A stretch of 64,000 nucleotides of DNA from assembly GCF_001921205.1 (NCBI RefSeq), contig NZ_MSIE01000031.1:62001-126000 (forward strand), read 5' to 3'. The translations under genes and the position numbers were made by a program. The notes below the pieces were generated by a model. It was not told the origin of the DNA. It saw only the letters and a list, made by a program, of their open reading frames with translations, and made no database searches. How positions within the stretch are numbered: position 1 is the first letter of the stretch; each line of letters starts with the position of its first letter. Positions 9,591-54,928 of this stretch are shown piece after piece. Source of the DNA: Actinophytocola xanthii (GTDB lineage: Bacteria; Actinomycetota; Actinomycetes; Mycobacteriales; Pseudonocardiaceae).

Positions 9591-10874
9591 ATGGAGAATT
9601 CACTGCTGGCCGCGTGCCTCGAGGAGCTTGTCACCCGGTACGGCGTGCCCGGGGCACAGTTCGCCGTGCTGCACGGCGACACCGAGTGGCACTGGACGCA
9701 CGGCGTGGCCAGGACCGGTACCCGCACGGCGATGACCGTCGACGCCCCGGTCCCGGTCGGGTCCATCACCAAGGTCGTCACCGCCGCCGCGGCGATGGTG
9801 CTGGTCGACGACGGCGACCTGGACCTGGACGAGCCGCTGGCCGAGCCCGTGGCCGAGCTGCGTGAGCTGCCACCCCGGCTGGGCGAGCGGATCACGCTGC
9901 GGCACGTGCTGAGCCACACCGCCGGCCTGCCCTGCGACCCGGTCGAGGCCCGCGCGGCCACCCCGCGCGGGCACGTGCTCGACAGCTGTCGCGGCGCCCG
10001 GCCGCTGTCCGACCCGGGAACGCTGTTCTCCTACTCCAACATCGGCTACCTGCTCGCCGGGCACGCGGTCACGACGATCACCGGCATGAGCTGGTGGGAC
10101 GCCGTGCAGGCGCTCGTCCTCGGTCCGCTCGAGGTGCCGGCCCGGTTCGTCGCCGGCGGGCGCGTCCCCGACGACCTGGTCAGCGGGCACTCCATGCGGC
10201 GCCGGCCGGTGCTCCAGTCGCTGCGGCCCGCGGAGGCGGCCGTCGGCGCGCTCGGTGCGAGCGCCCGCGACCTGGTCGCGCTGGGCCGGGGACTGCTGCG
10301 GGAGAACCGCGAGATGCGCACGCCGGTCCCCGGTGCCGACCCGTTCGGCCTGGCCGACGGCTGGGGCCTCGGCCTGGCCACCTACGGCTCGGACGGCGCG
10401 ACGGTCGGCCACGACGGCAACGGCGACGGCACGTCCTGCCACCTGCGGATGAACCCCGCCACCGGCACCGTCGTGGCGCTGACGACCAACTCCAGTACCG
10501 GGTTCGCGCTCTGGCGCGACCTCGCCCCGCGCCTGCCGGCGCTGGGCATCCCGGTCAAGGACTACGACCCGCTCGCGGTCGCCGGCCGGCCGGTCCCCGC
10601 CCCCGCGGGCTGTCTCGGCGCCTACACCAACGGCGACCTCGAGTACGCCGTGGAGCCTGGCGAGAACGACGTTCTGCGGCTCACCGTCGAGGGCGAGCCC
10701 TTCGCCGACCTCACCGTCTACTCCGGACACCGTTTCACGATGCGCGACTGCGACACCGGCATGACCGACCAGGCCGGCCGGTTCGTCCTCGACCGGCAGG
10801 GTCGCGTCACCGGCCTCCAGGTCGGCGGCCGGATCGCGCTGCGGCACGCCGAGCGCTCACGTCTCGTCGGCTGA
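9591..10874 (+). CDS. Stand-alone PBP-type thioesterase/peptide cyclase (beta-lactamase fold)
   Basis: 427 aa serine hydrolase of the class C beta-lactamase/PBP fold. Catalytic residues are visible: SITK (Ser58, Lys61), YSN (Tyr148) and GHDG (His274). The last ~100 residues look like the lipocalin-like domain known from the peptide cyclase SurE. It is the first gene of the NRPS operon, 34 bp before the first synthetase, and the synthetases lack any C-terminal TE domain. Family knowledge: SurE-type enzymes release and macrocyclise peptides from the last carrier protein and prefer a D-residue at the C-terminus; here the last module ends in an epimerisation domain, which fits. There is no signal peptide, which argues against a wall-acting DD-peptidase. 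An esterase role is the alternative. Start ATG 9591. Confidence 0.85.
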   Translation: MENSLLAACLEELVTRYGVPGAQFAVLHGDTEWHWTHGVARTGTRTAMTVDAPVPVGSITKVVTAAAAMVLVDDGDLDLDEPLAEPVAELRELPPRLGERITLRHVLSHTAGLPCDPVEARAATPRGHVLDSCRGARPLSDPGTLFSYSNIGYLLAGHAVTTITGMSWWDAVQALVLGPLEVPARFVAGGRVPDDLVSGHSMRRRPVLQSLRPAEAAVGALGASARDLVALGRGLLRENREMRTPVPGADPFGLADGWGLGLATYGSDGATVGHDGNGDGTSCHLRMNPATGTVVALTTNSSTGFALWRDLAPRLPALGIPVKDYDPLAVAGRPVPAPAGCLGAYTNGDLEYAVEPGENDVLRLTVEGEPFADLTVYSGHRFTMRDCDTGMTDQAGRFVLDRQGRVTGLQVGGRIALRHAERSRLVG

Positions 10875-10908
10875 CAACCCCACGGACTTCTGAAAGGTAC
10901 CCACGGCC

Positions 10909-18522
<7,614 letters not shown>

Positions 18523-18551
18523 AACCCCGTGACCGGAGGAAGAGCTCCCCG

Positions 18552-21500
18552 ATGACCTCGTCCCGACAGCACCGCATCGACTCGCTGCCCGAGCACCTGC
18601 GGGCCAAGCTGGCGGAGCGGCTGGCCGGCCGCTCCGCCCCCGAACCCACCGCAGCCATCACCCCGGCACCGCGCGGCGGGCCGCTGCCGCTGTCCTCGGC
18701 CCAGCAGCGGCTGTGGTTCGCCAGCGAGTTCACCCCGGGCGGCACCGACTACAACAGCGGCGTGGCCCTGCGGCTGACCGGTGAGCTGCGGGTGCCGGCG
18801 CTCGCGGCGGCGGTGGCGGCGCTGCCGCGCCGGCACGAGTCGCTGCGGACCACGTTCGACGAGGCCGACGGGCGGCCGGTCCAGGTCGTGCACACCGACG
18901 CCGACACCGAGCTGCCGGTCCGCGAGTGCGCCGAGCAGGAGCTGGCCGCGCTGCTCGACGCGGAGTTCGCCCGGCCGTTCGACCTGCACCGCGGTCCGCT
19001 GTTCCGGGCGCTGCTGGTCCGCCTCGCACCGCGCGACCACGTGCTGCTGCTCACCGCCCACCACATCGTCGTCGACGGATGGTCGCTGCGGGTGCTGCTC
19101 GCCGAGCTGGCCGCCGGCTACGCGGGCGCCACCCCCGCGGCCCCGGCACTCCAGTACGCCGACTACGCGGTCTGGCAGCAGGACCGGCTGGCCGGCCCGG
19201 CGATGACCGGGCACATGGACTACTGGCGCCGGGTGCTCGACGGCGCCGACCCGCTCGACCTGCCCACCGACCGGCCCCGCCCCGCGATGCGCTCGACGCG
19301 GGGTGCGGCCCACGAGTTCACGGTGCCCGGGGTGCTCGCCTCGCGTCTCACGCACGTGGCGAGCACCTGCGACACGACGCTGTTCACCACCCTGACAGCG
19401 GCCTGCGCGGTCCTGCTGGCGCGCTACAGCGGCCAGCGGGACGTGTCGCTGGGCACCGTGACCTCGGGGCGGACCCGGCCCGAGCTGGACGGGGTCGTCG
19501 GGTTCTTCGTCAACACGGTCGTCCTGCGCCCGGCGGTGGACCAGGAGCTGACGTTCACCGAGTTCCTCCGCGGGGTGGCGAGCGACTCGCTCGAGGCGTT
19601 CAGCCACGACGAGGTGCCGTTCGACCGGCTGGTCGAGGCGGTCGGGGCGCCCCGCGACCCCAGCCGCAACCCGCTGTTCGACGTGCTGGTGACCCTGCAG
19701 AACGAGCGGCGCGGGCTGCCCGCGTTCCCCGGCCTGCGGGTCGAGGAGGTCACCCTGCGGCGCGACACCGCCAACTTCGACCTCAGCTTCGACTTCACCG
19801 AGCACACCGACCGCGTCGACTGCCTGCTGGAGTACAGCACCGACCTGTTCGACGCCGACACCGTCGAGCGGCTGGCTCGCCACCTGGTCGCCCTGCTCGA
19901 CGCGGTCACCACCGCCCCCGACCGCCCGCTGTCTACTGTGGAGTGGCTGGCCGGGTCGGAGCGGGAGACGGTCCTGGAGACCTGGAACGACACCGCGCAC
20001 GAGGTCCCGGCCACGACCTACCCGGCCCTGTTCGCCGCCCAGGCCGCCCGGACCCCCGACCGGCTCGCGTTGGTCTGCGGGGACGAGCGGCTGACCTTCG
20101 CCGAGCTGGACCGCCGGGCCAACCGGCTGGCCCACCGGCTCCTCGCCGCCGGCGCCGGGCCGGAGCGCGTGGTGGCCGTCGCCCTGCCGCGCCGGGCCGA
20201 GGCCGTCGTGGCGCAGCTGGCCGTGCTCAAGGCCGGCGCGGTCTACCTCGCCGTCGATCCGGCCCTGCCCGAGCGCCGCCGCGCCCAGCTCGTCGAGGAC
20301 TCCGGCGCGGTGCTCGTCGTGGACGGTCCACTCGAGACCGACGGCCTGCCGGACACCCCGCCCGCACACGGTCCCCGGCCGGACAACGCCGCCTACGTCG
20401 TCTACACCTCCGGCTCCACCGGCCGCCCCAAGGGTGTGCAGGTCGAGCACCGGCAGCTGGTGAACCTGCTGCACAACCACCGGGCCGACTTCGTCGCCGC
20501 GGCCGGCGGCGGCCCGCTGCGGGTCGCGCTCTCGGCGGTGTTCTCGTTCGACACCTCGTGGGAGGGCCCGGTCCTGATGGCCGACGGCCACGAGCTGCAC
20601 CTGCTCACCGACGAGGTCCGGCTCGACCCCGAGGCGCTCGTCGACTACGTGGTGACCCACCGGATCGACTTCCTCGACCTGACCCCGTCCTACCTGCGCC
20701 GGCTGCTGCCGGCCGGGCTGCTCACCGACTCCCGGCACCGGCCGGCCGTGCTGATGCTCGGCGGCGAGGCGCTGGACGTGCCGCTCTGGCGTGAGCTGGC
20801 CACGCTGCCGGACACCGCCGTCTACAACTTCTACGGCCCGACCGAGGTCACCGTGGACGCGCTCTCGGCGCGGGTGGCGGGGGAGCGACCGGTCATCGGC
20901 CGTCCACTGTGGAACTTGCGGGCGTACGTGCTCGACGAGCGGCTGCGGCCGGTGCCGACCGGCGTGCCGGGCGAGCTGTACCTCGCCGGCGCCCAGGTGG
21001 CCCGCGGCTACCTGGACCGGCCCGGGCTGACCGCCAGCAGGTTCGTCGCCGACCCGTTCGGGCCGGCCGGGACCAGGATGTACCGGACCGGCGACGTCGT
21101 CCGTTGGCTGCCGGACGGCACCGTGCAGTACCTGGGCCGCGCCGACGACCAGGTGAAGATCCGCGGGTTCCGCATCGAGCCCGGCGAGGTCGAGGCGGCG
21201 TTGCTGGGCTGCGCGGGTGTCGGCGAGGCCTGCGTGGTGGCCAGGGGCGGGGACGGTGCCGAGGGCGGGCACCGCAGGCTGGTCGGCTACGTCGTGCCGG
21301 CCGCCGGGCAGAGCCCCACCCCGGCCGGGCTGCGGGCCGAGCTGAAGCGGGTGCTGCCCGACTACCTCGTGCCCGCGGCGTTCGTCGTGCTCGAGCGGCT
21401 GCCGCTGACCCCGAGCGGGAAGGTCGACCGGCGGGCCCTGCCCGCACCGGAGACCGGCGTGGACGTCGACAGCGCCTACCAGGCGCCGCGGGGAGAGACC

Positions 21501-24500
21501 GAGGAGCGCCTCGCGGCGCTGTGGGCCGAGGTGCTCGGCGCCGAGCGGGTCGGGGCCAACGACAACTTCTTCGGCCTCGGCGGCGACTCGATCCTCAGCA
21601 TCCAGCTGGTCTCCCGTGCCCGCCAGGCCGGCCTGCGGTTCACCTCCCGCGACGTGTTCGCCAACCAGACCGTCGCCGAGCTGGCCACGGTCGTCACCAC
21701 GGCCGAACCCGCCGCTGCCGCCGCGCCGGCACCGGTGGGCCCGGCGCCGCTGACCCCCATCCAGTCCTGGTTCTTCGCCACCCACGGCGACCGCCAACAC
21801 TTCACGATGTCGCTGCTGGTGGAGCTGACCGACGAGGTGGACCACGCCGCGCTGCGCACCGCGCTCGCGGCCGTCGTCGCCCACCACGACGCCCTGCGCA
21901 CCCGGTTCCACCGCGACGGTGAGAGCTGGCGGCAGGAACCGGGGGACGCCTCCCTGGACGTCGAGGCAGTCGACCTGGAGACCGTCGACCTCGCCAGCGT
22001 CGCCGAGGTCGACGTCGCGGCCCGCGTCGCTTCCGCCGCCCGGGCGGCGCGGGTCGCGCTGGACCTCGCCGCGGGCCGGGTCCTGCGGGCACTCCTGTTC
22101 GACCTCGGGCCGGGGCGCCAGGCCCGCCTGCTGCTCGTCGCGCACCACCTGGTGGTGGACGGGGTGTCCTGGCGCGTGCTGACCGAGGACCTGCGCACCG
22201 CCTACCGCCAGGCGGCCGCGGGCCGGCCGGTGCGGCTGACCCCGGTCGGCACCGACTACGGCACGTGGGCCCACCGCCTGGCCGAGCACGTCGCGACCGG
22301 CGGGTTCGACGACGACCTGCCGTACTGGACGGCCGTGCCCGAGCCCGCACCGCTGCCCGCCGACCACGACGGCGAGGCCACGGCCGGAACCGCCCGGTCG
22401 CTGACCGTCCGGCTCGACCGCGACACGACGGCGGCACTGCTGCGGCTGGCCGAGGAGCGCTACCGCGCCCACGCCGACGACGTGCTGCTGACCGCGCTCG
22501 GCCGGGTGCTCGGCGACTGGACCGGGCGGGACACCGTCGCGGTCACCCTCGAGGGCCACGGCCGCGAGGACGTCGTCGGGGGAGTGGACCTGTCCCGCAC
22601 GGTCGGCTGGTTCACCACCCAGTACCCGCTCACGCTCGACCTGCCGGCCGGCGGCTGGGACGCCGCGCTCAAGGCGGTCAAGGAGCAGGTCCGCGCCGTG
22701 CCCCGGCGCGGGATGAGCTTCGAGGCGCTGCGGTACCTGCGGCCGGGCAGCGGGCTTTCCGCGCCGCTGCCGCCGGTCTGCGTGAACTACCACGGCCGCT
22801 GGGAGGACGACGCGGGCGAGGTGTTCCGCACCCGCCACGAGCCGACCGGAGCCGAGGTGGACCCCGCGGCGCCGCTGGACTTCCCGCTCGAGGTCAACGG
22901 CCTCGTCCAGGGCGGTGAGCTGGTCCTGGCCTGGCAGTACTCCACCGCGCGACACGACGAGGCGACCGTGCGGGGCCTGGCCGAGGCGACCACCGCCGCG
23001 CTGCGGGAGATCGCCGAGCACTGCGCGGCACCCGGGGCCGGCGGACGCACCCCCTCGGACTTCCCGCTGGCGCGCCTGACCCAGGAGCAGGTGGACGCGA
23101 TCGCCGGGGACGGCACCGACGTCGTCGACGTCTACCCGCTCACCCCGCTGCAGGCCGGCATGCTCTTCCACAGCCTGGTCGACCCGGACAGCGGCGCCTA
23201 TGTGGACCAGGTGCGGCTGGTCCTCGACGGCGTTCCCGACCCGGAGGTGCTCGCCGAGGCCTTCCGCCAGACCGTCGAGCGCAACCCCGTGCTGCGCACG
23301 AGCCTGGTCTGGGACGGGGTGCCCGGTGACCTCCCCGAGCCGGTGCAGGTCGTACACCGCCGCGTCGACCTGCCGGTCGTCCACCACGACCTGCGGGGCC
23401 GCCCGGAGCACGAGCTGGAGGAGCTGGTCGCGCGGGACCGCGCCGAGCGCCTGGACCCCGGGCGGGCGCCGCTGACCAGGCTGGTGATCGTGCGGACCGG
23501 CGAGGACCGGGTCGTGTTGCTCTGGTCGACCCACCACGTCCTGCTCGACGGGTGGAGCACCGGACAGGTGTTCGCCGAGGTCTGTGCCCGGCATGCGGCG
23601 ATCGGCCGCGGCGTCCCCGCCACCGTGCCGGCGCGGCGTCCGTTCCGCGACTACCTGGGCTGGCTCGCGGAGCAGGACACCGAGGCCGCCGACGCCTACT
23701 GGCGGTCGGTGCTCGCCGGGTTCGACGCCCCGGTCGCCGTCCCCTACGACCGCCAGCCCACGCAGGCCCACCGCACCGAGTCGAGCGCCTCGGTCCGCGC
23801 CGAGCTGGACCCCGCGGCGACCAGCACCCTGCGTGCCGCCGCCCAGCGCGCCGGGCTGACCGTGAACACCGTCGTGCAGGGCGCGTGGGCGCTGCTGCTG
23901 TCGCGCTGGGCGGGCACCGACGACGTGGTGTTCGGCAGCACGGTCTCCGGCCGGCCCGCGGAGCTGCCCGGCGTCGAGGCCATGGTCGGCATGTTCATCA
24001 ACACGGTCCCGACCCGGGTCGCCGTCGACCCCCACCGTGCCGCGGAGCCGTGGCTGCGGGAACTCCAGGCCGCGCAGAGCGAGTCGCGCCGGCACGACTT
24101 CCTGGCGCTGACCCGCGTGCAGTCCCACGCCGACCTGGCACCGGGCGCGGCGCTGTTCGACAGCGTCGTGGTGTTCGAGAACTACCCGTTCGAGGACGCG
24201 TCCACAGCGGACGGACTGCGGGTGGCCGGGGTGCACACGGTCGACACCACCAACCTGCCGCTCACCCTGTCGGTGAACCTGGACGAGCGGGTGCGGTTCG
24301 AGCTGGCCTACGACCCGGCACTGCTCGACCCCGCCACCGCGCGCCGCGCGACGGACTGGCTGCTGGCACTGGTCGCCGGGATCGCGCAGGACCCCGCCCG
24401 GCCGCTCGGCGAGCTGCCCTGGCTGTCCACCGCGGACCGGGAGCTGGTCCTGCCGCCGCCCGGGCACGGCGCGTTCACCGCCGGACCGCTGTTCCACCAG

Positions 24501-27500
24501 GTGGTCCGGCACCGGGCCACGCTCACGCCCGACGCCACCGCGCTCGTCTGCGGCGCCTCCCGGCTGACCTTCGCCGAGCTGGAGGCCACCGCCAGCCGGC
24601 TCGCCCACCGGCTGCTCGAGCAGGGCGCCGGCCCCGACCGCGTCGTCGGGCTCCGGCTGCCCCGCTCGGTGGACTTCGTCGTCGCGATGCTGGGCGTGCT
24701 GAAGTCGGGTGCGGCCTACCTGCCGATGGACCCGGGGCTGCCTGCCGACCGCGTCGAGTTCATCCTCGCCGACGCCCGGCCGGTGCTCGTGCTCGACGAG
24801 CTGGGTGACCTGTCCGGATACCCGGCGCAGGACCCCGGCGTCCCGGTACGGCCCGAGCACGCCGCGTACGTGATCTACACCTCCGGCTCCACCGGCCGGC
24901 CCAAGGGCGTCGTCGTCGACCACGCGAACCTGGCCGCGCTGCACCACGACCACCGGCACGACCTCATCGACACCCTGCCCACGCCGCAGCGGTTCGCGCT
25001 GACCGCGGCGTTCTCGTTCGACACCTCGCTGGAGGGCCCGCTGTTCCTGGCCGAGGGCCACGAGCTGCACGTGATCGACGAGGAGCTGCGCCTGGACCCG
25101 CCCGCGCTGGTGGAGTACTTCCGCCGCAACCGGATCACCGCCGTCGACCTCACGCCGACCTACGCCACCCAGCTCATGGCCGCCGGGCTGGCCGACGCCG
25201 GCGTCGGCCTGATCATGATCGGCGGCGAGGCGGCGACCGACACCCTCTGGCGGGCGCTCGCGGAGCGCCCGGACCTGACCGCGATCAACTACTACGGGCC
25301 GACCGAGGTCACCGTGGACGCCACGGTCCGGGTGGTCACCCCGGGCAGCCGTCCGCTGATCGGCGCTCCGATGTCGACGGTGCGGGGCTATGTCCTGGAC
25401 CCGGAGCTGCGGCCGGTGCCGGTGGGCGTGCCGGGCGAGCTGTACCTGGCCGGCCCGCAGGTCGCGCGGGGCTACCTGAACCGGCCGGGGCTGACCGCGA
25501 GCAGGTTCGTCGCCGACCCGTTCGGCGCACCCGGCACGCGCATGTACCGGACCGGCGACCGGGTCCGGTGGACCGACGAGGGCGACCTGGACTACCTCGG
25601 CCGGGCCGACGACCAGGTCAAGATCCGCGGCCACCGGGTCGAGCCCGGTGAGGTCGCCGCCGTGCTGCGGGACCTGCCCGGTGTGCGCGACGCGGCGGTC
25701 GTCGCGCGGGACGACGGCACCGGCGTCCGGCTCGTCGCCTACCTCGTCGGCACGACCGAGGACCCCCGTACGGCGCTCGCCGGGGTCCTGCCGGACTACC
25801 TGGTGCCGGCAGCGTTCGTCACGCTCGACGAGCTCCCGCTGACCACCAGCGGCAAGCTGGACCGCCGGGCGCTGCCCGCCCCGGACCTGCGTGCCGAGGC
25901 GGACACGTTCGTCGCGCCGCGCAGCGAGGCCGAGCGGGTCGTCGCCGCCACCTGGACCGACGTGCTCGGCGTCGAGCGGGTCGGGGCGCACGACAACTTC
26001 TTCGCTCTGGGCGGCGACTCGATCCTCAGCATCCGGGTCGTGTCGCGGCTGCGTGCGGCGTTCGGCACCCAGATCTCCCCGCGGGCGGTGTTCGAGCACC
26101 CGACGGTCGCCGCGCTCGCCGCGGCGGTTCCCGGTGGTGACACCGCCCCGATCCCGGCGGCGGCCGGCACCGGCCCGGCGCCGATGTCCTTCGCCCAGCA
26201 GCGGCTGTGGTTCCTCGACCAGTTCGAGGAGAACGGCACCGAGTACGTCTCGCCGACCACGCTGCGGCTCACCGGCGACCTGGACGTCGAGGCGCTGACC
26301 GCCGCGCTCACCGGGCTGGTCGCCCGGCACGAGTCGCTGCGCACCACGTTCGACGAGGTCGACGGCCGAGGCGTGCAGGTCGTCCACGACCCGACCCCGG
26401 CGAACCTGGTGCTGGTCGACCTCGCCGGCGACCCGGCGCGGCTGGACGAGATGCTGGCCGCCGAGTGCGCCCGCCCGTTCGACCTGCGCACCGGACCGCT
26501 GCTGCGCACGACGCTGGTCCGGCTCGCTCCGCGCGAGCACGTGCTCGTCCTGGCGCTGCACCACATCGTCACCGACGGCTGGTCCACCTCCGTGCTGACC
26601 GAGGACCTCGCCGCCCTGTACCGCGGCGCGGAGCCGGCGCCGGTCCCGTTGCGCTACCGGGACTTCGCCGCCTGGCAGCGGGAGTGGGCGGCGGGACAGG
26701 ACGCGGCCAGGAGCCTGGACCACTGGCGCGACGCCCTGGCCGGTGTCGAGCCGCTCGACCTGCCCACCGACCGGCCCCGCCCGGCCGTGCGCACGAGCGC
26801 GGGAGCCGTGCACCGGTTCACCCTGCCGGCGGCCGAGACCGCGGCGCTGGTGGAGCTCGGCCGGCGCCGGGACAGCACGCTGTTCATGACGCTGCTCGCC
26901 GCCTGCCAGGTCCTGCTCGCCCGCTACAGCGGCCAGCAGGACATCGCGGTGGGCACCGTCACCGCCGGCCGCGACCGGGCCGAGCTGGACCGGCTGGTCG
27001 GGTTCTTCGTCAACACGGTCGTGGTCCGCGAGACCGTCGAGGAGGCCGAGTCCTTCGCCGAGCTGCTGGCGCGGGTACGGGCCACCGTGCTGGCCGCGTT
27101 CGCCCACCAGGACGTGCCGTTCGAGCGGGTCGTCGACGCGCTGGCGCCCGAGCGCGACCCCAGCCGCAACCCGCTGTTCGACGTGATGGTCCTGCTGCAG
27201 AACACACCCGAGGAGCTGCCCGACCTGCCAGGGCTCGAGGTCACCGAGGTCACCGCGCCCGTGGTGACCTCCACCCACGACCTCACCTTCGAGTTCCAGC
27301 AGTCCGGGGACGAGCTGCTCGCCGGGATCGAGTACAACCCCGACCTGTTCGACGCGGACACCGTCGACCGCCTCGGCCACCACCTGCGAGTGCTGCTGGC
27401 CGCGGTCGCCACGGCGCCGGACCGGCCGCTCTCGGCCGTCGACCTCACCGACGCCGCCGAGCGGGACCTGGTGCTCCAGACCTGGCAGGGCGGCGACCTG

Positions 27501-30500
27501 ACCCGGCAGTTGCCGGCGCTGCCGCGGGTGTTCGCCGCCCAGGCCGCCAGCACCCCGCACGCGGTGGCCGTGGTGTGCGGCTCGGACTCGCGCACGTTCG
27601 CCCAGGTGGACGCGGAGGCCAACCGACTCGCCCGCTGGCTGCTCGCGCGGGGCGCCGGGCCGGAGCGGCTCGTCGCGCTGCGCCTGCCGCGCTCGGTCGA
27701 CTTCGTCGTCGCGATGCTCGGCGTGCTCAGGTCGGGCGCCGGGTACGTGCCGATCGACCCCGGGCTCCCGGCCGACCGGGTGGCCTTCCTGCTGGCCGAC
27801 ACCGACCCCGTGGTGGTGCTCGACGAGATCCCCGACACCGGCGACCTGCCGGCTACCGACCCCGGGGTGGTCCCGCACCCGGCGCACCGCGCCTACGTCA
27901 TCCACACCTCCGGGTCCACCGGCGTGCCCAAGGGCGTCGAGGTCGACCACGCCAACCTGGCCGCGCTCTATCACGACCACCTGGTCGACCTGATCGCCCC
28001 GCTGCGGGGGCGGCAGCGGTTCGCGGTGACCGCCTCGTTCTCCTTCGACACCTCGCTGGAGGGGCTGCTGTTCCTGGCCGCCGGCCACGAGCTGCACGTG
28101 ATCGACGAGGACCTGCGCCTGGACCCGCCCGCGCTCGTGGACTACCTCCGCGAGGCCGGGATCACCGCCGTCGACCTGACCCCCAGCTACGCCACCCAGC
28201 TCATGGCCGCGGGCCTCGCGGACTCCGGCGTCGAGCTGGTCACCTTCGGCGGCGAGGCGGCGGGCGAGGCGCTCTGGCGGGAGCTCGCCGAGCGGCCGGA
28301 CCTGACCGCGATCAACTACTACGGGCCGACCGAGGTCACCGTGGACGCCACGGTGCGCAGGGTGACGCCGGGCAGCCGTCCGCTGATCGGCCGTCCACTG
28401 AGGACGGTTCGGGCCTACGTACTGGACGGGGAGCTGCGGCCGGTGCCGGTGGGCGTGCCGGGTGAGCTGTACCTGGCCGGCCCGCAGGTGGCCCGCGGCT
28501 ACCTCGGTCGCCCGGGGCTGACCGCACGGCGGTTCCTGGCCGACCCGTTCGGCGCGCCCGGCACTCGAATGTACCGGACCGGGGACCGGGTCCGGTGGAC
28601 GGTGGACGGCGACCTGGACTACCTCGGCCGGGCCGACGACCAGGTCAAGATCCGCGGCCACCGGGTGGAGCCCGGCGAGGTCGCGGCGGCCCTGCTCGCC
28701 CACCCGGACGTGCGGGAGGCCGTCGTCGTGCCCCGCGCGGCCGGCGACCACCTGCGGCTGGTCGGCTACGTCGTCGGCGGCGACCCCGCCGAGCTGACCG
28801 AGCACCTGCGCGCCACGCTGCCCGACTACCTGGTGCCGGCCGCGCTCGTGCCGCTGGCGGCCCTGCCCACCACCCCCAACGGCAAGGTCGACCACCGGGC
28901 GCTGCCCGAGCCGCCGGCCCCGGCGGAGGCCGGCTTCGTCGAGCCGACACCGGGGACCGCCGGCGAGTTGGCCGCGATCTGGGCGAGCGCGCTGGGTGTG
29001 GCGCGGGTCGGCGCGCACGACAACTTCTTCGCCCTCGGCGGCGACTCGATCCTGAGCATGCAGGTCGTGTCCGCCGCCCGCGAGGCCGGGATCCGGTTCA
29101 CCGCCAAGGACATCTTCCTGCGGCAGACCGTCGCCGACCTCGCGCTGGTCGCCACCCGGGAGACGACCCGGGCACAGCCCACCGACCAGGCCGGCCCGGC
29201 GCCGCTCACCCCGATCCAGCGCTGGTTCCTCGACACCCACCCGCCCGAGCACCGCGACCACTACGCGATGTCGATGACCGTGGGGCTCTCCCCGGACGTC
29301 GACGTCGAACGGCTGCGCCGGGCGCTGGCCGCCCTGGTCGACCAGCACCCGGCGCTGCGGACCCGGTTCACCGACAGCACCCAGGAGCCCGGCGCCGGCG
29401 GCGACGTCCTGACCGTCGAGGAGGCGGCGGAGGAGGAGCGCGACCGGATCGCCCGCGCCGCCCAGGCGTCGCTTCGCCCCGCGCGGGGCGAGGTGCTGCG
29501 CGCGGTCCTGTTCGCCGGCGCCGACCCCGTGCTGTTCCTGACCGCACACCACCTCGTCGTCGACGCGGTGTCCTGGCGGGTGCTGCTGGCCGACCTGGAA
29601 CGCGCCTACGCCGACCCGTCGGCACTCGGTCCCCGAACCGTCTCTTTCGGACAGTGGGCCCGGCTGCTGGGCGAGCACGTGCGCTCCGGCGGGTTCGACG
29701 CCGACCTGCCGCACTGGCGTGCCGTGCCCGCCGCGCCGCCGCTCCCGCTGGACCGGCCCGACGGGGACAACACCATCGCCACCGCCCGCACGGTCAGCAC
29801 CGTGCTGAGCGCCGAGGAGACCGACGCGCTGCTGCGCCGGGTGCCCGAGGCCTACCGCACCCAGGTCAACGACGTGCTGCTGGCCGCGATCGGCCGGGCG
29901 CTTGCCGAGTGGACCGGAGGGCCGCGCGTCCTGCTCACCCTGGAGGGGCACGGCCGCGAGGACGTGCTCGACGGCCTGGACACCAGCCGCACGGTGGGCT
30001 GGTTCACCAGCCAGTTCCCGGTCGCCCTGGAGGTGCCCGAGGCCGACTGGGGCACGACGCTGAAGTCGGTCAAGGAGGCGCTGCGCGCGGTGCCGCACCG
30101 CGGCATGAGCTTCGAGGCGTTGCGCTACCTGCGCCCCGACGCCGGGCTCGAGGACGTGCCGGAGCCGCAGGTCTGTGTGAACTACCTCGGCCGCTTCGAC
30201 GCCGGCGACGCCGAGGACGGCCTGCTGCGCGGTACCGCCGAGCCGCTCGGGCAGGACATCGGCTCGGACACCCGGCGCGGCCACCTGCTCGACATCACCG
30301 CCGCGGTCGAGGACGGCCGCCTGCGGGTGGAGTGGGAGTACTCGGGCGAGCTGCACGACGAGCCGACCGTGCTGGCGCTGGCCGAGCGGGCCCGCGGCGC
30401 CCTGCTGGAGATCACCGCCCACTGCGCCGAGCACGGCGGCCGGACGCCGTCGGACTTCCCGCTCGCCCGGCTCACCCAGTCCGAAGTGGACCGTCTGGTC

Positions 30501-33500
30501 GGGGACGGCCGGGACGTCGAGGACGTCTACCCGCTCACCCCGATGCAGGCGGGCATGCTGTTCCACAGCCTGGCCAACGACACCGGCGAGGCCGGCGCGT
30601 ACGTGACCCAGACCCGCGTCCGGCTCGACGGCGTGGACGACCCGCGCCTGCTCGGTACGGCCTGGCAGCGGGTGGTGGACCGGACCCCGATCCTGCGCAC
30701 CGAGTTCGTCTGGCGCGGCGTCGGCACGCCGGTGCAGGTCGTGCGCCGGGACGTGGCAGTGCCCGTGGAGTACCGGGCCATCTCGGCGCAGGACCTGACC
30801 GCCGACCTCGACCCCGCGAGCGCGCCGCTCATGCGCCTGGTGGTCGAGCCGGCCGGGCCTGGCGCCGTCGACCTCCTGTGGACCTGCCACCACCTGCTGC
30901 TCGACGGCTGGAGCACCTCCCAGGTCTTCGCCGACGTGCTCGCCGAGTACGCCGCGCTGGCCACCGGCCGCCCGGCCGCGGGACCGGCCCGGCGGCCCTT
31001 CCGCGACTACCTCGCCTGGCTCGCCGAGCAGGACGTGGCGGCCGCCGAGCGGCACTGGCGCGAGGTCCTCGCCGGGATCACCGAGCGGACCCCGCTGCCG
31101 TTCGACCGGGCGCCGGTCGCCGCGCACCGCACCGAGACCTCCGCCGCCGTGGCGCTCTCGCTGCCCGCCCGCGACCTCGAGCGGACCGCACGCGAGCACG
31201 GGCTGACGGTCAACACCCTGGTGCAGGGCGCCTGGGCGCTGCTGCTCGCCCGGCACAGCGGGGAACGCGACGTCGTGTTCGGCACGACCGTGTCCGGCCG
31301 CCCCGGTGACCTGCCGGGTGTCGAGTCGATCGTCGGCATGTTCATCAACACCGTGCCCACCCGCGTCCGCGTCGAGCCGGGCGCGGCGCTGCCGGAGTGG
31401 CTGCGTGCGCTGCAGGAGGCGCAGGCCGAGTCCCGCCGGTACGACTTCCTGTCGCTCTCGCAGGTCCGGGCGTGCGGCGAGGTGCCGGCCGGGGAACCGC
31501 TGTTCGACAGCCTGGTCGCCTTCGAGAACTACCCGATCGACGGCGAGCACGCCGACGGGCCGCGGGTGAGCGCCGTCGAGAGCGCCGAGACCACCAACCT
31601 GGCGATCAGCGTCGCCGCCCACGTCGACGACGCGGTGCTGCACCTCGAGCTCGGCTACGACCCCCGCCTGTTCGACCAGGCCGGCGCCGAGGCCCTCGCG
31701 GGGCGGTTCCGGCGGGTGGTCGCCGCGATGGCGACCGACCTCGACCGGACGGTGGACGAGCTGCCGGTGCTCTCGGCCGCCGAGCGCGAGCGGGTGCTGG
31801 TGGAGTGGAACGGCTCGGCCACCCCGGGGACGCCGGTCACGATCACCGAGCTGTTCGCCCGGCAGGCCGCACGCACCCCGCACGCGGTCGCCGTGACCGA
31901 CGGGGACCGGGCGCTCACCTACGCCGAGCTGGACGTGCTGTCCAACCGGCTGGCGCACGCCCTCCTCGAGCGGGGCGCCGGGCCGGAGCGCCTGGTGGGG
32001 CTCTCCCTGCCGCGTTGTGCCGACCTGGTCGTCGCCGTGCTGGGCGTGCTCAAGTCCGGTGCCGGCTACCTCCCGCTGGACCCGGACTACCCGGCCGAGC
32101 GGATCGCGCGGACCGTCGCCGACGCCCGCCCGGTCACCGTGGTCGAGGGCGCGCTGCCCGACCTGGGCGGCTACCCGGCCGACCCGGTCGCGGTGGAGGT
32201 GCGTCCCGAGCACCCCGCCTACGTGATCTACACCTCCGGCTCGACCGGGGTGCCCAAGGGCGTGGTGATCCCGCACGCCAACGTCACCCGGCTGTTCACC
32301 GCGACCGACCACTGGTTCGGCTTCGACTCCTCGGCCGTGTGGGCGCTGTTCCACTCCTACGCCTTCGACTTCTCGGTCTGGGAGCTGTGGGGGCCGCTGC
32401 TGCACGGCGGGCGGCTGGTCGTCGTCCCGCACGAGGTCACCCGCGACCCGCGCGCGCTGCTGGCGCTGCTGGCCGCCGAGCGGGTGACCGTGCTGAACCA
32501 GACGCCGTCGGCCTTCTACCAGCTGGTCGCCGCCGACGAGGCCGAGCCGGGAACCGACCTGGCGCTGCGGCACGTCGTGTTCGGCGGCGAGGCGCTGGAC
32601 CTGTCCCGCCTTGCCTCCTGGTACCGGCACCACGCCGACGACGCGCCGGTGCTGGTGAACATGTACGGCATCACCGAGACCACCGTGCACGTCACCCACG
32701 TCGCGCTGGACGCGGAGACGGCGGCGTCGGCCAGGGGCAGCCTGGTCGGCGAACCGATCCCGGACCTGCGGACCTACGTCCTGGACGCCGACCTCGACCC
32801 GGTGCCGCCCGGGGCACCCGGTGAGCTGTACGTGGCCGGCGCCGGCCTGGCCCGGGGCTACCTGAACCGGCCGGGGCTCACCGCGAGCAGGTTCGTCGCC
32901 GACCCGTTCGGGCCGCCCGGAACTCGCATGTACCGCTCGGGCGACATCGTCCGCTGGACCTCCGGCGGCGGCCTGGAGTACCTGGGCCGCGGCGACCAGC
33001 AGGTCAAGATCCGCGGGTTCCGGATCGAGCTGGGCGAGGTGGAGGCGGTCCTGGCCGCCGACCCCGAGGTCACCCAGGTCGCGGTCGTCGACCGCGAGGA
33101 CGAGCCCGGCCACCGCCGGCTGGTCGCCTACGTGGTGGGAACCGTCGACACCGCCGCGGTCCGCGACCGCGCCGCCCGCGTGCTGCCGGCGCACATGGTG
33201 CCCGCAGCGTTCGTCACCCTCGACCGGATCCCGCTCACCACCAACGGCAAGCTGGACCGGCGTGCCCTGCCCGCGCCCAGCGCGACCGGCACCGACGACC
33301 ACCTCGAGCCGCGCACCGACGCCGAACGCGCCGTCGCGGCGGTGTTCGCCGAGGTGCTCGGCGTCGAACGGGTCGGTGCCGAGGACAACTTCTTCCTGCT
33401 CGGCGGGGACTCGATCATCGCCATCAGGGTCGTCTCCCGGCTGCGGGACCGGCTCGGCGTCGAGCTGTCGCCGCTGACGCTGTTCACCCACAGCACGGTC

Positions 33501-36500
33501 GCCGACCTCGCCGCGGCACTCGGCGACCGGCTCGCCGAGCCCATTCCGGCGGTGCCCGACGACGGTGACCACGGCGGGGACACCCCGCTCTCCTTCGCCC
33601 AGCAGCGGCTCTGGTTCCTGCACCAGTTGGACCCGACCAGCACCGAGTACACGGTTCCGCTCGCCGTGCGCCTGCGCGGACCGCTCGACCTCACCGCGCT
33701 CGGCGGTGCCCTCACCGCGCTGGTCGCGCGGCACGAGTCCCTGCGCACCACCTGCCACGAGGTCGACGGGCGCGGCATGCAGCGGGTCCACCCGCCGGGC
33801 GAGGTCGCGCTGCCGGTGGTCGACGTCGCCGAGGCCGACCTGGCCGCCACGCTCACCGCCGTCGCGGCCGAGCCGTTCGACCTGGTGGCCGGGCCGCTGC
33901 TGCGGGCGAGGGTGTTCCGCCTCGGGCCAGGGGACCACGTGCTGGCGCTGACCGCGCACCACGTGGTCACCGACGGCTGGTCGGCCGGCATCGTCGCCGG
34001 CGACCTCGCCGAGCTGTACCGCGCCCAGGTCGACGGCGTCCCGGCCGACCTGCCGGAGCTGCCGGTGCGCTACCGCGACTTCGCGGCCTGGCAGCGCGGG
34101 CGCACCGAGGTGCTGGAGTCCCAGCTGCGGCACTGGCAGCAGGTGCTGGCCGGCGTCCCCGCGCTCGACCTGCCCACCGACCGGCCGCGCCCGCCCGTGC
34201 ACACCACGCCCGGCGCCCAGGTCGGGTTCACCGTGCCGGCCGCGGTCGCCGACGCGCTGCGGGCGGTGGCCCGAGCGCAGGACGGCACGCTGTTCATGGC
34301 GCTGGTCGCCGCGTGCACCGCGCTGCTGCACCGGTTCAGCGGCCAGGACGACGTCGCCGTCGGCACGGTCGCCTCCGGACGCGAGCACCCGGACCTGCGG
34401 CGCGTCGTCGGGTTCTTCGTGAACACGCTCGTGCTGCGGACGCCGGTCGACGCCCGGCGGTCGTTGCGCGAGCACCTGGGCCGGGTGCGGGAGACCGCGC
34501 TCGCGGCGTTCGCCAACCAGGACGTGCCGTTCGAGCGGGTCGTCGACGCGGTCGACCCCGACCGCGACGCCAGCCGGACCCCGCTGTTCCAGGCCATGGT
34601 CGTGTTGCAGAACGCCGCCGAGCGGACCGAGGACTTCGCGGGCCTGCACGCCCGGGACGTGGACCTCCCGGTCGTGACCGCGAGCTACGACCTGACCTTC
34701 GAGTTCCACGAGGGCGACGACGGCTCGCTCGCGGCCGTGCTCACCTACAACACCGACCTGTTCGACGCCGCCACCGCGGAGCGCTTCGCCACCGGGCTGG
34801 ACCGCGTCCTCGGCGCCGCCGCGGCCGACCCGGACCAGCCGGTGGGCGCGATCGACGTCGTCACCGACGAGGAACGGCGCCTGGTCGACTCCTGGCACGA
34901 CGCCGGACCGGACGTCGAGCCGGCCACGCTGATCGAGCTGTTCCGCGCCCAGGTGGCCCGCACCCCGGACGCGCCGGCGCTGGTCGCCGGGGACCTGGTG
35001 CTCGGCTACGCCGACCTCGCCGGGTGGGTGGACCGGTTCGCCCGCGTGCTCGCCGCCCGCGGCGCCCGGCCGGAGACCGTCGTGGCGCTGGTGCTGCCCC
35101 GCTCGGTCGAGCTGATCGTCGCCCAGCTCGCGGTCGCCGCCGCCGGCGCGGCCTACCTGCCGGTGGACCCGGACTACCCCGCGGACCGCAAGGAGCTGAT
35201 GCTCGCCGACGCCCGGCCGGTGCTGGTGGTCGACGACCCGGCGCAGGTGCACCCGACCGACGCCCCGGACGTCGAGCTGGCGGCCGCGGAGCTGGCCAAC
35301 CCGGCCTACGTCATCTACACCTCCGGGTCCACCGGCACGCCCAAGGGCGTGGTCGTCACCCACCGCGGGCTGGCCAACTTCGCCTTCGCCGAGGCGGACC
35401 GGTTCGCCGTCCGGCCCGGTGACCGGGTGCTCGCGTTCTCCTCGCCGAGCTTCGACGCCTCGGTGCTGGAGCTGTGCCTGGCGCTGCCGCACGGCGCGGC
35501 GATCGTCGTGCCGCCGCCCGGGCCGCTGCTCGGCGAGCACCTCGCCGAGGTCCTGGCGAGCTGCCGGGTCACCCACACGCTGATCCCGCCGGTCGCGCTG
35601 GCGACGGTCCCGGAGACCGACCTGCCCGACCTGGCCACCCTGGTGGTCGGCGGCGACGCCTGCTCGGCCGCGCTGGTCCGCCAGTGGGCGCCGGGACGGC
35701 GGCTGGTCAACGCCTACGGCCCGACCGAGGCGACGGTCGTCGCGACCTGGTCGCAGCCGCTCGCCCCGGACCAGGGCGCTCCGCCGATCGGCCGCCCGAT
35801 CTGGCACACCAGGGCGCTGGTGCTCGACGCCGACCTGCGCCCGGTGCCGGTCGGGGTCGCCGGCGAGCTGTACGTGGCCGGCGTCGGCCTGGCCCGCGGG
35901 TACCTCGGCCGGTCGGGGCTGACCGCCTCGCGGTTCCTGGCGAACCCCCACGGGGAGCCGGGGGAGCGGATGTACCGCACCGGCGACCTGGTGCGCTGGA
36001 ACCGGACCGGGGAGCTGGAGTTCCTCGGCCGGGCCGACGACCAGGTCAAGGTGCGGGGTTTCCGGATCGAGCTGGGCGAGGTCGAGGCGGCACTGCGCGA
36101 GCACCCCGACGTCGCCGACTCGGTCGCGTCCGTCCGGCCGGACGCCGCCGGGCACAAGCGCCTGGTCGGCTATGTCGTGCCGGCCGGGGACCGGGTGCCG
36201 AGCGGCGGGGAGCTGCGGGAGTTCCTCGGCGAGCGGCTGCCCGAGTACCTGGTGCCGACCGGCTTCGCCGCGCTCGACCGGCTGCCGATGTCCCCCAACG
36301 GCAAGGTCGACCGGCGGGCGCTGCCCGAACCCGACCTCACCCCGGCCGAGACCGAGTTCGTCGCACCGCGCACGCCGGTGGAGACCACGCTCGCCCGGGT
36401 GTGGTCGGACGTGCTCGGCGTCGACCGAGTGGGCATCACCGACAACTTCTTCGCCCTGGGCGGCGACTCGATCCTCAGCGTCCAGGTCGTGGCGCGGGCC

Positions 36501-37901
36501 CGGCGCCACGGGCTCTACCTGTCCACCAAGGACCTGTTCAACGCGAGGACGATCGCCGAGCTGGCCGAGGTCGTCGCCGTCGAGTCCGGTGTGGAGGACC
36601 GCGCCGAGGTCACCGGAGCCGTGCCGCTCACCCCGATCCAGCACTGGTTCTTCTCCTCGGGGCGGACGAACCCGCACCACTTCAACCAGGCGCACCACGT
36701 GGAGCTGCCCGGCGAGCCCGACCCCGCCGCGCTGCGGGCGGCACTCGACGCGCTGCTGGCCCACCACGACGCCCTGCGGCTGCGGTTCCACCGCGACGGC
36801 GACGGCTGGCACCAGCACAACGCCGGCCACCGACCGGCCGACGTCCTCGAGATGCACGAGCTCCCCGGCCCCGAGGACCCCGCGGTGACCGAGCTGGCCG
36901 ACGCCCTGCACGCCGGCTTCGACCTCGGCGCCGGCCCACTGCTGCGGGCCGCGTTGTTCCGGTTCGCCGACGGCAGCCCCGCTCGGCTGCTGCTCGTCGC
37001 CCACCACCTCGTGGTCGACGGCGTGTCCTGGCGGCTGCTCGTCGACGACCTCGACACCGCCTACCACCAGGTCCTGCGGGGCGAGCCGGTCGACCTGGGA
37101 GCCAAGACCACCTCCTGGCAGCGCTGGTCGACCGCGCTCACCGAGCTGGTGGCCGATGGGGGTCTCGACGCCGAGCTGGACTTCTGGTCCGCCGCCCGCG
37201 ACGCCGGGGACCTGCCGACCACCGACCCGGCCGGCGGCTGCGGCACCGACGCGGTGGAGGTCGTGCTGGACGCCGCGGACACCGAGGCCCTGCTGCGCGC
37301 CGCCCCGACCGCCTACCGCACCCGGGTCAACGACGTGCTGCTCGCCGCGCTCGCCTGGGCGCTGTCCCGGTGGACCGGCCGCGACCGTGTCGCGGTGACG
37401 TTGGAGGGACACGGCCGGGAGGACGTGCTGGACCTCGACGTGTCACGCACCGTCGGCTGGTTCACCACGATGTTCCCGGTCGCGCTGACCGTGCCCGAGC
37501 AGGGCCGGCCGGGCGACTGGCGGACGCTGGTCCGGGCGGTCCGCAAGCAGCTGCGTTCCCTGCCGCGCAACGGCTTCGGCTACGGCGCGCTGCGCTACCT
37601 CGGGTCGCTGGCGGACCCGGGTCCGTTGCCGGGGCTGTCGTTCAACTACCTCGGCCAGTTCGACTCCCGTGCCGAGGACGAGGAGCAGAGCCTGTTCGGC
37701 GCGACGCTGCCGGCGATCGGCGCCGACCAGGACCCCGCCGACCGCGGCGAGCACCTCGTGGACGTGGTCGGCGAGGCCTCCGACGGCCGGCTCTCGTTCG
37801 CCTGGTACTTCCGCGCCGACCGGTTCGACCGCGCCGCGGTCGAGGCCGTCGCCGCCGACTTCGCCGAGGCGCTGCGCGGCATGGCGGAGGACGTCCGATG
37901 A
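18552..37901 (+). CDS. NRPS 2: C-A-T-E, C-A-T, C-A-T-E, C-A-T, C-A-T-E (modules 4-8)
   Basis: 6,449 aa. Rough residues: C4 44-470, A4 475-955, T4 ~1011, E4 1063-1500, C5 1524-1955, A5 1963-2430, T5 ~2487, C6 2543-2970, A6 2973-3440, T6 ~3497, E6 3550-3985, C7 3989-4415, A7 4415-4890, T7 ~4950, C8 5010-5440, A8 5443-5910, T8 ~5971, E8 6023-6449. C5 and C7, which follow E domains, carry HHxLLDG; C4, C6 and C8 carry HHIVxDG or HHVVTDG, as expected for D and L donors. Pocket codes: A4 DTEDMGFVDK, A5 DTEDMGYVDK, A6 DTEDTGYVDK (three acidic positions, suggesting basic substrates), A7 DFWNVGMVHK (Thr code), A8 DALLVGAVVK (close to A1). E6 has HHLVVDA in place of HHxxxDG. The protein ends with E8; no TE or R domain. 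ATG 18552 with GGAGGAAGAG upstream. Confidence 0.95.
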
Positions 37902-39130
37902 GCAGGTCCACTGTGGAGGAGGTGCCGCTCCGGCGGAACCGGGACTTCACGCTGCTCTGGGTCGGCCAGGGGTGCGCGGAGATCGGGTTCAGCGCGTCGA
38001 TGCTCGCGTTCCCGCTCGTGGTGCTGGCCATCACCGGGTCGGCGACCGCCTCGGGGCTGGTGCTGGCCGCCGACGCCGTCGCCCAGGCCGTGCTGGCACT
38101 GCCCGCCGGCGCGCTGGTCGACCGGTGGGACCGCCGGCGGGTCATGCTGGCCTGCGAGCTGGCCCAGGTCGTGGCGCTGGCGAGCCTGGTCGCAGCGCTG
38201 CTGCTGGACGGGGCGAGCGTGGCGCACCTGGTCGCGGTGGCGGCGGTGCTCGGCGCGTGCCGGGCGCTGTTCGAACCGGCCGAGGACGCCATGCTGCCCT
38301 CGCTCGTGCCGGAGCGGCAGCTGGCGACGGCCGTCGCGACCAACAGCGCACGTTCGTCGATCGGGCAGATGTCGGGTACGGCGCTGGGCGGGCTGCTGTT
38401 CGGCGTCGCGCGCTGGGCGCCGTTCCTGCTCGACCTGCTGACCCACGCCGTCGCGTTCGTCACGCTGCTGTTCCTCCGAGCGCCGGCCCGCCGCGCCGAG
38501 CCCGCGCCGCACGGCCGGATCGGGCAGGAGATCCGCGAGGGCCTGCGCTTCCTGTGGCAGCGCAGGGAGATCCGGGTGACGACCGCGTGCGCGGTGGCGC
38601 TGAACCTGTTCTTCGCCGCCTACTACCTCGTCGTCGTCGTGCTCGCCGCGCGCCGCGGCACCCCGGCCGGCGAGATCGGCGTGATGGCCGCGATGCTGGG
38701 CGTCGGCGGGGTGCTGGGCGCGGTGCTGGCGCCGTCGCTGCACCGCCGGCTCTCCCCGCACGTGGCCATCGCTGGCGTGTTCTGGGCGCTGGCCGCGCTG
38801 TCCCCGCTGGCGGTGCTGGTGCACAACGGCTACCTGCTCGGCGTCCTGTTCGCGGCGATGGCCCTGCTCGCGCCGACCGCGAACACCACGATCGTCACCC
38901 ACCAGCTGCTGCTGACCCCCGACGAGCTGCGCGGCCGGTTGAGCGGCTCGCTCAACCTCGCCGTGGGCGGCGCGGCGGCCGCGGGCCCCGCCCTGGGCGG
39001 CCTGCTGGCCGAGTCCACCACCCCGACGACCGCCGTGCTGGTCAGCGCGGCGGGCATGACGGTCGCCGCGCTCGCGGTGACCGTGAACCCGACCCTGCGT
39101 CACTACCCGAGAGAGGAACAGAACCGATGA
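37898..39130 (+). CDS. MFS exporter in the NRPS operon
   Basis: 410 aa with about 12 membrane helices; resembles the EntS-like MFS group that exports siderophores and peptides. The [10 protein letters not shown] loop follows helix 2. Start ATG overlaps the NRPS 2 stop (ATGA), and its own stop overlaps the MbtH start, so it is translationally coupled on both sides. Likely exports the peptide product and may give self-protection. Confidence 0.9.
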
Positions 39131-39324
39131 GGGACGACATCACCTACCGCGTACTGGTCAACGACGAGGAGCAGTACTCCCTGTGGCCCGCCCACCTGGA
39201 GGTTCCGGCCGGCTGGCGCACGGAGGGTCCCACCGGAACGCAGGAGGAGTGCACTGCCTACGTGGACGAGGTCTGGACCGACATGCGCCCGCGCACCCTG
39301 CGCGAGCACATGGACGCCGGCTGA
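39127..39324 (+). CDS. MbtH-family protein (NRPS adenylation chaperone)
   Basis: 65 aa with all family marks: YRVLVNDEEQYSLWP, a Gly-Trp pair (PAGWR), and EECTAYVDEVWTDMRP followed by LREHMD. MbtH proteins bind A domains and are often needed for their folding and activity, here those of the two synthetases. ATG overlaps the stop of the MFS gene. Last gene of the operon. Confidence 0.96.
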   Translation: MRDDITYRVLVNDEEQYSLWPAHLEVPAGWRTEGPTGTQEECTAYVDEVWTDMRPRTLREHMDAG

Positions 39325-41367: not shown

Positions 41368-41457
41368 CCTTGGTCAGCCATCCCGAGTCGGCGTCAGCGG
41401 GGACACGGCGCTGTCGAACCGGTGGATGAGAACTACCGGACCCTGTTGAATGGGCGA

Positions 41458-47648: not shown

Positions 47649-47789
47649 CTCTACCTTCTCCGGATCGGGCGGCAACTGCGTGCAGGTGCGGCACGACCTC
47701 ACGGCGCTCCGGACAGCAAGCATCCCGAGTCCGTGATGCCGCTCAGCCCGGCCGCGTTGGCCGAGCTGGTGGGGTGGGTGCGGCGCTAG
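47638..47789 (+). pseudogene. DUF397, second tandem copy, frameshifted
   Basis: ATG 47638 opens MWRSSTFSGSGGNCVQVRHD, parallel to the first copy, but the frame stops after about 33 codons. Another frame continues with DSKHPESVMPLSPAALAELVGWVRR up to 47789. One added G near 47711 (CGGGAC in place of CGGAC) restores VRDSKHPE. Either a decayed duplicate or an assembly error. Confidence 0.7.
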
Positions 47790-54851: not shown

Positions 54852-54920
54852 ATCGATGGTTGCGTTGTTCGATGCAGATCGATACTCTCTGCTCGATCAA
54901 TCGAGGAGCATCGATCAATG
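54841..54920. promoter_or_regulatory. Divergent promoter region with repeated ATCGAT motifs
   Basis: Four exact ATCGAT copies (near 54842, 54852, 54878 and 54910) and the palindrome CTCGATCAATCGAG (54892-54905) lie within 80 bp between the hypothetical gene and the flavoprotein gene. Spacing and symmetry resemble sites of ArsR/SmtB-type regulators; no such regulator gene is adjacent. Confidence 0.55.
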
Positions 54921-54928
54921 GAGGCGTG

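What the first reader, a model, noticed from the sequence alone, without database searches (positions are those of the whole stretch)
9591..39324. Operon predicted to make a cyclic octapeptide with strictly alternating L and D residues
Epimerisation domains sit in modules 2, 4, 6 and 8 and in no other; the C domains after them (C3, C5, C7) carry the HHxLLDG form, the others HHIV/VVxDG. So each even residue should be D, including the last. No starter C domain and no TE domain exist, which favours head-to-tail closure. Even-numbered rings with alternating D,L residues are the well-known synthetic scaffold that stacks into nanotubes; I know no simple natural counterpart with this size. The gene order is seen; the product is inference.
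Basis: partly seen in the sequence, partly recalled or inferred. Interest (0 to 1): 0.85.

Follow-up and report, generated by a model that had tools for sequence, protein, structure and literature searches.

The report
Assembly line for alternating D,L cyclic octapeptide
A five-gene actinomycete operon probably makes a ring of eight amino acids whose handedness strictly alternates, closed by a separate SurE-type enzyme, on an assembly line that lacks one amino-acid-selecting domain; such rings are best known as man-made nanotube builders.

Summary
Largely confirmed, with two corrections. The operon (9591-39324) is cyclase / NRPS-A / NRPS-B / MFS exporter / MbtH. It has eight carrier and seven C domains, with epimerases only in modules 2, 4, 6 and 8. 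In a tree of C and E domains from 16 clusters, C3, C5 and C7 fall in the after-epimerase clade and C2, C4, C6, C8 in the other, so residues should read L-D-L-D-L-D-L-D.

Correction 1: the line has a cyclase. The gene at 9591-10874 is a stand-alone PBP-type thioesterase (nearest solved relatives SurE and Ulm16), a class that joins an L start to a D end.

Correction 2: module 2 has no adenylation domain. The state is stable: of 71 loci 12 lack A2, 28 keep a short remnant, 2 part, 26 all of it, and 3 could not be classed. A1 probably loads both modules.

Predicted ring: aromatic-(D-?)-Ser-(D-basic)-basic-(D-basic)-Thr-(D-aromatic); Ser and Thr from recalled codes, basic weakly supported. 15 of 16 clusters read in full alternate strictly. 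No product is known; stacking is untested. New variant of the SurE-type NRPS kind.

The parts
9591..10874 (+). Stand-alone PBP-type (SurE-type) thioesterase / peptide cyclase, 427 aa
   Evidence: PF00144; PDB 6ksu (SurE) 1.8e-60 and 8fek (Ulm16) 3.4e-49; Ser58, Lys61, Asn150, His274 and pocket Gly219 (correspondence by the alignment)
10909..18522 (+). NRPS-A, 2537 aa: A1-T1-C2-T2-E2-C3-A3-T3
10909..12318 (+). A1, code DALLIGAVV (aromatic type); candidate loader of T1 and T2
12625..14199 (+). C2 followed directly by T2: module 2 without an A domain (355 aa from C2 HHxxxDG to T2 GGDS)
14206..15414 (+). E2 epimerization domain
15487..18477 (+). C3 (after-E clade), A3 (DVWHLSLID, Ser), T3
18552..37901 (+). 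NRPS-B, 6449 aa: C4-A4-T4-E4-C5-A5-T5-C6-A6-T6-E6-C7-A7-T7-C8-A8-T8-E8
21717..23042 (+). E4 epimerization domain
29160..30443 (+). E6 epimerization domain (HHLVVDA variant)
31818..33263 (+). A7, code DFWNVGMVH (Thr)
34905..36317 (+). A8, code DALLVGAVV (aromatic type)
36594..37901 (+). E8, terminal epimerization domain
37898..39130 (+). MFS exporter, 410 aa, start overlaps the NRPS-B stop
   Evidence: TIGR00900 8.6e-55, below its cut-off; found after NRPS-B in 15 of 15 relatives
39127..39324 (+). MbtH-like protein, 65 aa
   Evidence: PF03621 2.5e-21 on the enclosing frame; in 13 of 15 relatives

Best explanation
The operon makes a head-to-tail cyclic octapeptide with strictly alternating L and D residues. 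NRPS-A starts at A1-T1 with an L residue of aromatic type. Module 2 has no A domain; its carrier is most likely loaded by A1 acting a second time, E2 turns that residue to D, and C3, a D-donor type, passes it on. The line then adds Ser, three residues of probably basic type (4 D, 5 L, 6 D), Thr, and a last aromatic-type residue that E8 turns to D. The separate SurE-type enzyme takes the chain from T8 and joins L-residue 1 to D-residue 8, so the alternation runs unbroken round the ring. The MFS protein exports it; MbtH supports the A domains. Shown: gene order, domain order, C-domain clades, missing A2, cyclase homology. Inferred: chirality of each residue, residue identities, A1 double loading (about 0.6 likely on its own), ring size, export.
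For: E domains only in modules 2, 4, 6, 8, in 15 of 16 fully read clusters. All 48 C domains that follow an E fall in one clade, the other 64 of 65 in a second; one column has Arg in 64 of 65 and Gly in 41 of 48 (6 gaps, 1 Asp), like the published LCL/DCL difference (passages of PMC11546977). Cyclase: SurE 1.8e-60, Ulm16 3.4e-49; PBP-type TEs join L N-terminus to D C-terminus, and SurE makes octapeptide rings (PMC11735501 section 7). No methylation or other modifying domain in the NRPS. A-less module 2 in 40 of 71 loci, no A gene conserved beside it; precedent CmnA-A1 loading CmnI.
Against: No product, no assay. E6 has the variant HHLVVDA. The tree held no reference C domains of proven type. 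Residue codes for Ser and Thr are recalled; basic for A4-A6 is weak, with an alignment gap near position 239, and comparison with solved structures was inconclusive. A helper A domain elsewhere in the genome is not excluded. G131, with a related cyclase, has nine modules and no strict alternation.
Confidence: 0.72

Rival explanations
1. Same ring, but T2 is loaded by a separate A or A-T protein encoded elsewhere, as in syringomycin or ramoplanin, so residue 2 differs from residue 1.
For: Such helpers are known (PMC8949500 section 4.1); the genome holds 36 matches to the NRPS-type A model, including ones outside this cluster.
Against: No A gene recurs beside the cluster; among the 30 largest flank families printed, those beyond the exporter stretch hold at most 5 genomes, each of one genus (most loci reach only some 5-8 kb out). 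Three g34 genomes lost A3 as well, and in G260 and G273 A3 has A1's code, which fits loading by A1.
Confidence: 0.25
2. Module 2 is skipped, or only receives residue 1 and epimerizes it, so the product is a cyclic heptapeptide.
For: T2 has no A domain of its own.
Against: T2, E2 and a C3 of after-E type persist in the 15 octamodular clusters. If E2 acted on residue 1 the chain would start with D, against the L start that PBP-type TEs use. This argument is inference.
Confidence: 0.12
3. The peptide is a siderophore with hydroxylated basic residues.
For: The exporter has some EntS similarity (5.3e-26); a siderophore-interacting-protein family gene (51503-52294) and two flavoprotein genes (54860-57384) lie downstream.
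Against: No such gene is among the families that recur across genera beside the cluster; the best NCBIfam match of 56140-57384 is ArsO-like, below its cut-off.
Confidence: 0.06

Closest known systems
Surugamide NRPS with SurE, and kin with PBP-type TEs (ulleungmycin Ulm16, wollamide/desotamide WolJ, pentaminomycin PenA)
   Same: Stand-alone PBP-type TE, terminal E domain, no fused TE, head-to-tail ring; surugamide A is also an octapeptide
   Different: Surugamide is not strictly alternating (recalled); here module 2 lacks A and residue predictions differ
Capreomycin/viomycin NRPS (CmnI loaded by CmnA-A1)
   Same: A module without A domain, probably loaded by the first A domain; MbtH present (PMC12400406, part 1 of 3)
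   Different: There in trans, module 3, shown by experiment; here the A-less module follows A1 in the same protein, loading untested
Lugdunin (fibupeptide)
   Same: Natural ring of alternating D,L residues; stacks into nanotubes in membranes (passages of PMC11045845)
   Different: Seven residues with a thiazolidine; no evidence of stacking here
Synthetic cyclic D,L-alpha-peptides (Ghadiri type)
   Same: Even-numbered alternating ring, amphiphilic with Trp and basic residues in some designs (designs recalled; cited in PMC11045845)
   Different: Man-made; composition here only predicted
PF1022A and bassianolide (fungal cyclooctadepsipeptides; recalled)
   Same: Natural eight-unit rings of alternating L and D units
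   Different: Ester bonds, N-methyl residues, fungal iterative synthetases

Membership tests
PBP-type TE (SurE-type) NRPS lines | Stand-alone PBP-type TE homologous to SurE beside the NRPS | tested here: met
   (6ksu 1.8e-60), adjacent upstream of NRPS-A
PBP-type TE (SurE-type) NRPS lines | Catalytic Ser, Lys, Asn, His kept | tested here: met
   S58, K61, N150, H274 align with SurE motifs; which Asn and His act in SurE is recalled
PBP-type TE (SurE-type) NRPS lines | L residue at the N-terminus and D residue (or Gly) at the C-terminus | tested here: met
   No E in module 1, terminal E8; by domain logic, not by product
PBP-type TE (SurE-type) NRPS lines | Head-to-tail cyclic product | not testable with these tools
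   no product
Surugamide family | Surugamide residue sequence and D positions | tested here: not met
   codes and E order differ from surugamide as recalled
Lines with an iterative A domain (capreomycin kind) | A module without an A domain | tested here: met
Lines with an iterative A domain (capreomycin kind) | Another module's A domain loads it | not testable with these tools
   needs enzyme assays
Fibupeptides (lugdunin) | Alternating D,L ring with thiazolidine | tested here: not met
   Alternation predicted, but Pfam shows no reductase domain and no Cys module was recognised among the codes
Nanotube-forming cyclic D,L-peptides | Even ring, strict alternation, free backbone NH | tested here: inconclusive
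   Predicted from domains: E order, no methylation domain; not seen in a product
Nanotube-forming cyclic D,L-peptides | Stacking in membranes | not testable with these tools
   needs the peptide

The most novel reading that the evidence does not exclude
A widespread natural family of simple, unmethylated, amphiphilic cyclic D,L-octapeptides (aromatic and basic residues) that stack into beta-sheet nanotubes in membranes: nature's own version of the synthetic D,L-cyclopeptide nanotube. It is built by lines in which one A domain fills two modules, or three in the g34 genomes where A2 and A3 are both gone, with intermediate stages of the loss still present in living species.
Probability: 0.3. Interest if true: 0.86.

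Novelty: new variant of a known kind. Interest (0 to 1): 0.62.

Why it matters
If the product alternates as predicted, it is a gene-encoded, evolvable source of the D,L-cyclopeptide scaffold that chemists use for self-assembling channels, in eight-residue form. Relatives keep the ring logic while positions 3, 5 and 7 change, a natural structure-activity series. The A2 series (whole, remnant, gone) makes it directly testable how an assembly line keeps working after losing an A domain, which matters for NRPS engineering and for product predictors that assume one A domain per residue.

Tried and rejected
Closure without an enzyme or by a fused TE: rejected, a SurE-type gene opens the operon. A2 lost through a sequencing or assembly error: rejected, 11 further genomes lack it cleanly and 28 loci keep a remnant. 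Inactive E6: weakened, the variant is conserved at E6 in 14 of 15 and the C7 after it is of after-E type. Stand-alone A gene in the flanks: none among the recurring families printed (ORFs of 60 aa or more, up to 22 kb, but 10 of the 15 relatives held only 40-kb loci). Substrate from solved structures: led nowhere, much the same chains top the A6, A1, A8 and A4 queries; capreomycidine-enzyme CmnG stands high for A6, not for A4. Substrate codes by text search: no paper. Siderophore: judged unlikely. Known octapeptides in kin genera: none of the 15 papers listed of 129 holds 'cyclic octapeptide'. A combined search on alternation, octapeptide, NRPS and nanotube listed 14 of 15 papers, of which I read parts of two (PMC8949500, PMC11735501). 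These cover open-licence papers only and do not prove absence from print. Plasmid search with NRPS-A: 81 records, none with one place covering 80% of it. Structure prediction and fold search were not run.

Full report
What was checked. The window lies in a draft genome of 8.34 Mb in 204 contigs. The best named relative of the cyclase is in Saccharothrix coeruleofusca (52% identity), so the family is probably Pseudonocardiaceae (inference).

Domain order. Pfam finds only condensation-type, AMP-binding, AMP-binding C-terminal and carrier domains in the two NRPS. Motifs and a profile parse give A1-T1-C2-T2-E2-C3-A3-T3 and C4-A4-T4-E4-C5-A5-T5-C6-A6-T6-E6-C7-A7-T7-C8-A8-T8-E8. The profiles were built from the window's own domains; Pfam independently counts 2 AMP-binding stretches and 3 carriers in NRPS-A. 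So there are eight carriers and seven A domains. The A-T start of NRPS-A and the final E of NRPS-B fix the order of the two proteins.

Stereochemistry. E domains lie in modules 2, 4, 6 and 8 only. In a tree of 177 C and E domains from 16 clusters, all 48 C domains that follow an E fall in one clade (SH-aLRT 99), whose only other member is C4 of G131; the remaining 64 C domains form the second (97). The labels need 3 changes, shuffled mean 82.8, as low in 0 of 200 shuffles; near-copies make clustering easier, as the tool warns. No C domain of proven type was in the tree. Published hints name the clades: a review says a D-type C domain always follows an E domain, and that an Arg conserved in LCL domains is Gly or small in DCL domains (PMC11546977, passages). 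In our alignment one column has Arg in 64 of 65 and Gly in 41 of 48 (the rest 6 gaps and 1 Asp); another has Arg in 64 of 65 and Gly in 45 of 48. That either is the published residue is my inference. The window's E domains keep HHxxxD, EGHGRE and NY; E6 has Ala for Gly, shared at E6 by 14 of 15 octamodular clusters, G034 being the exception; in two relatives one E domain each (G100 E4, G289 E2) did not match my NY pattern.

Release. The first gene's best PDB matches are SurE (6ksu, 1.8e-60) and Ulm16 (8fek, 3.4e-49), then IS11 (4.7e-24) and beta-lactamase-type proteins. Ser58, Lys61, Asn150 and His274 align with SurE motifs, and Gly219 with what I count as SurE Gly235, using a recalled Ser63 to fix the offset. 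Gly235 opens the pocket for a bulky C-terminal D residue (PMC11735501 section 7, both parts read). According to that review such enzymes join an L N-terminus to a D C-terminus; SurE prefers neutral, aliphatic or aromatic D residues at the end and disfavours L-Arg at the start. The predicted chain begins with an aromatic L and ends with an aromatic D residue, with the basic block inside.

Relatives. Of 297 sampled family genomes, 130 have a cyclase match at 1e-30 or better; the weak end probably includes other enzymes. I chose loci mainly by high cyclase identity. Sixteen clusters, window included, were read in full: 15 have E in modules 2, 4, 6 and 8 and no other; G131 has nine modules with E in 2, 5, 7 and 9. 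In 19 of 20 further 20-kb loci the visible part, to about module 6, agrees; G169 does not. The MFS gene follows NRPS-B in 15 of 15 relatives (partly seen in G131, whose locus ends there) and MbtH in 13 of 15, not found in G034 and G131. Among the 30 largest flank families printed, those outside the NRPS-B end and exporter stretch hold at most 5 genomes, each of one genus; smaller families were not printed. In the window's genus 2 of 6 genomes have the cyclase, the window's own and G115.

The missing A domain. I measured from the C2 HHxxxDG to the T2 GGDS in 71 loci (16, 35, 20; lengths). Only 15 of the 45 named loci were used. Twelve, the window among them, have 349-357 aa and no A. Twenty-eight have 415-457 aa; the 12 printed keep only the C-terminal subdomain, without the usual lysine motif, and G239 is placed by length alone. 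Twenty-six have a whole A2 (838-874 aa; L070 is broken elsewhere). Two Catenulispora loci (L054, L068; 591 and 607 aa) have an A2 without the A3 core motif in a cluster of another code type, which looks like a separate loss. G022, G114 and L065 could not be classed. Three g34 genomes (G034, G068, G096) also lack A3. The likeliest reading is that A1 fills T1 and T2, and T3 in g34. The support is indirect: no linked A gene (limits above); G260 and G273, whose A3 has A1's code, so that its later loss would cost nothing if A1 reaches T3; and capreomycin CmnI, loaded by CmnA-A1 in experiment (PMC12400406, part 1 of 3 read). Separate A-T helpers are the known alternative (PMC8949500 section 4.1), and the genome has other A domains.

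Residues. Codes by alignment: A1 DALLIGAVV, A3 DVWHLSLID, A4 DTWDMGFVD, A5 DTLDMGYVD, A6 DTLDTGYVD, A7 DFWNVGMVH, A8 DALLVGAVV. Ser for A3 and Thr for A7 are recalled textbook codes. Aromatic for A1 and A8: 6 of 8 positions agree with a Phe/Trp code printed in PMC7565604 (passages). Basic for A4-A6: acid at 278 and Asp at 331 as in recalled Orn and Arg codes; weak, and a gap leaves position 239 uncertain. Across the 15 octamodular clusters A1 and A8 keep the DALL[IV]GAVV code in 15 of 15, A4 and A6 the DTxDxGxVD type in 15 of 15, A5 that type (Val or Ile at 330) in 14 of 15 (G223 differs, recalled as Val-like). A3 is Ser-type in 10, Thr-type in 3, DVFSIAMVH in 1 and absent in 1; A7 is Thr-type in 8 and A1-like in 7.

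What it works like. The logic is that of SurE lines with full alternation. Alternating rings can stack: lugdunin forms water-filled nanotubes in membranes (PMC11045845, passages). No methylation domain was found, so the backbone NH groups should be free, and a basic block between aromatic residues would give an amphiphile. Nothing here shows activity or stacking.

Verdict. Searches for prior reports (open-licence papers only, mostly seen as listings) showed no description of this cluster.

Noticed in passing
L054 and L068 (Catenulispora), NRPS after the cyclase gene: A2 has lost its core A3 motif region (591 and 607 aa against about 861-874 aa in Streptomyces loci): apparently a second, separate A2 erosion in a SurE-type line.
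   Followed up: partly
G034, G068, G096 clusters: Module 3 lacks an A domain too, so seven or eight residues would rest on six A domains.
   Followed up: partly
window 41422-44466 +: 1014-aa protein with NACHT N-terminal helical domain 1, NACHT and weak repeat matches, directly downstream region; possible NLR-like defence protein, only a marginal PADLOC match.
   Followed up: no
window 57276-60107 +: 943-aa frame with many near-identical repeats of about 38 residues and a hydrophobic C-terminal part; no Pfam, NCBIfam or PADLOC match.
   Followed up: no
window 47786-51321 -: Molybdopterin-binding and FAD-binding subunits of a xanthine/CO dehydrogenase-type enzyme.
   Followed up: no
window 54860-57384 +: Two neighbouring flavoprotein genes, the second ArsO-like.
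   Followed up: no
window 4176-4958 -: Thioesterase-family protein (type II TE candidate) next to a LysR regulator, upstream of the operon on the other strand.
   Followed up: no
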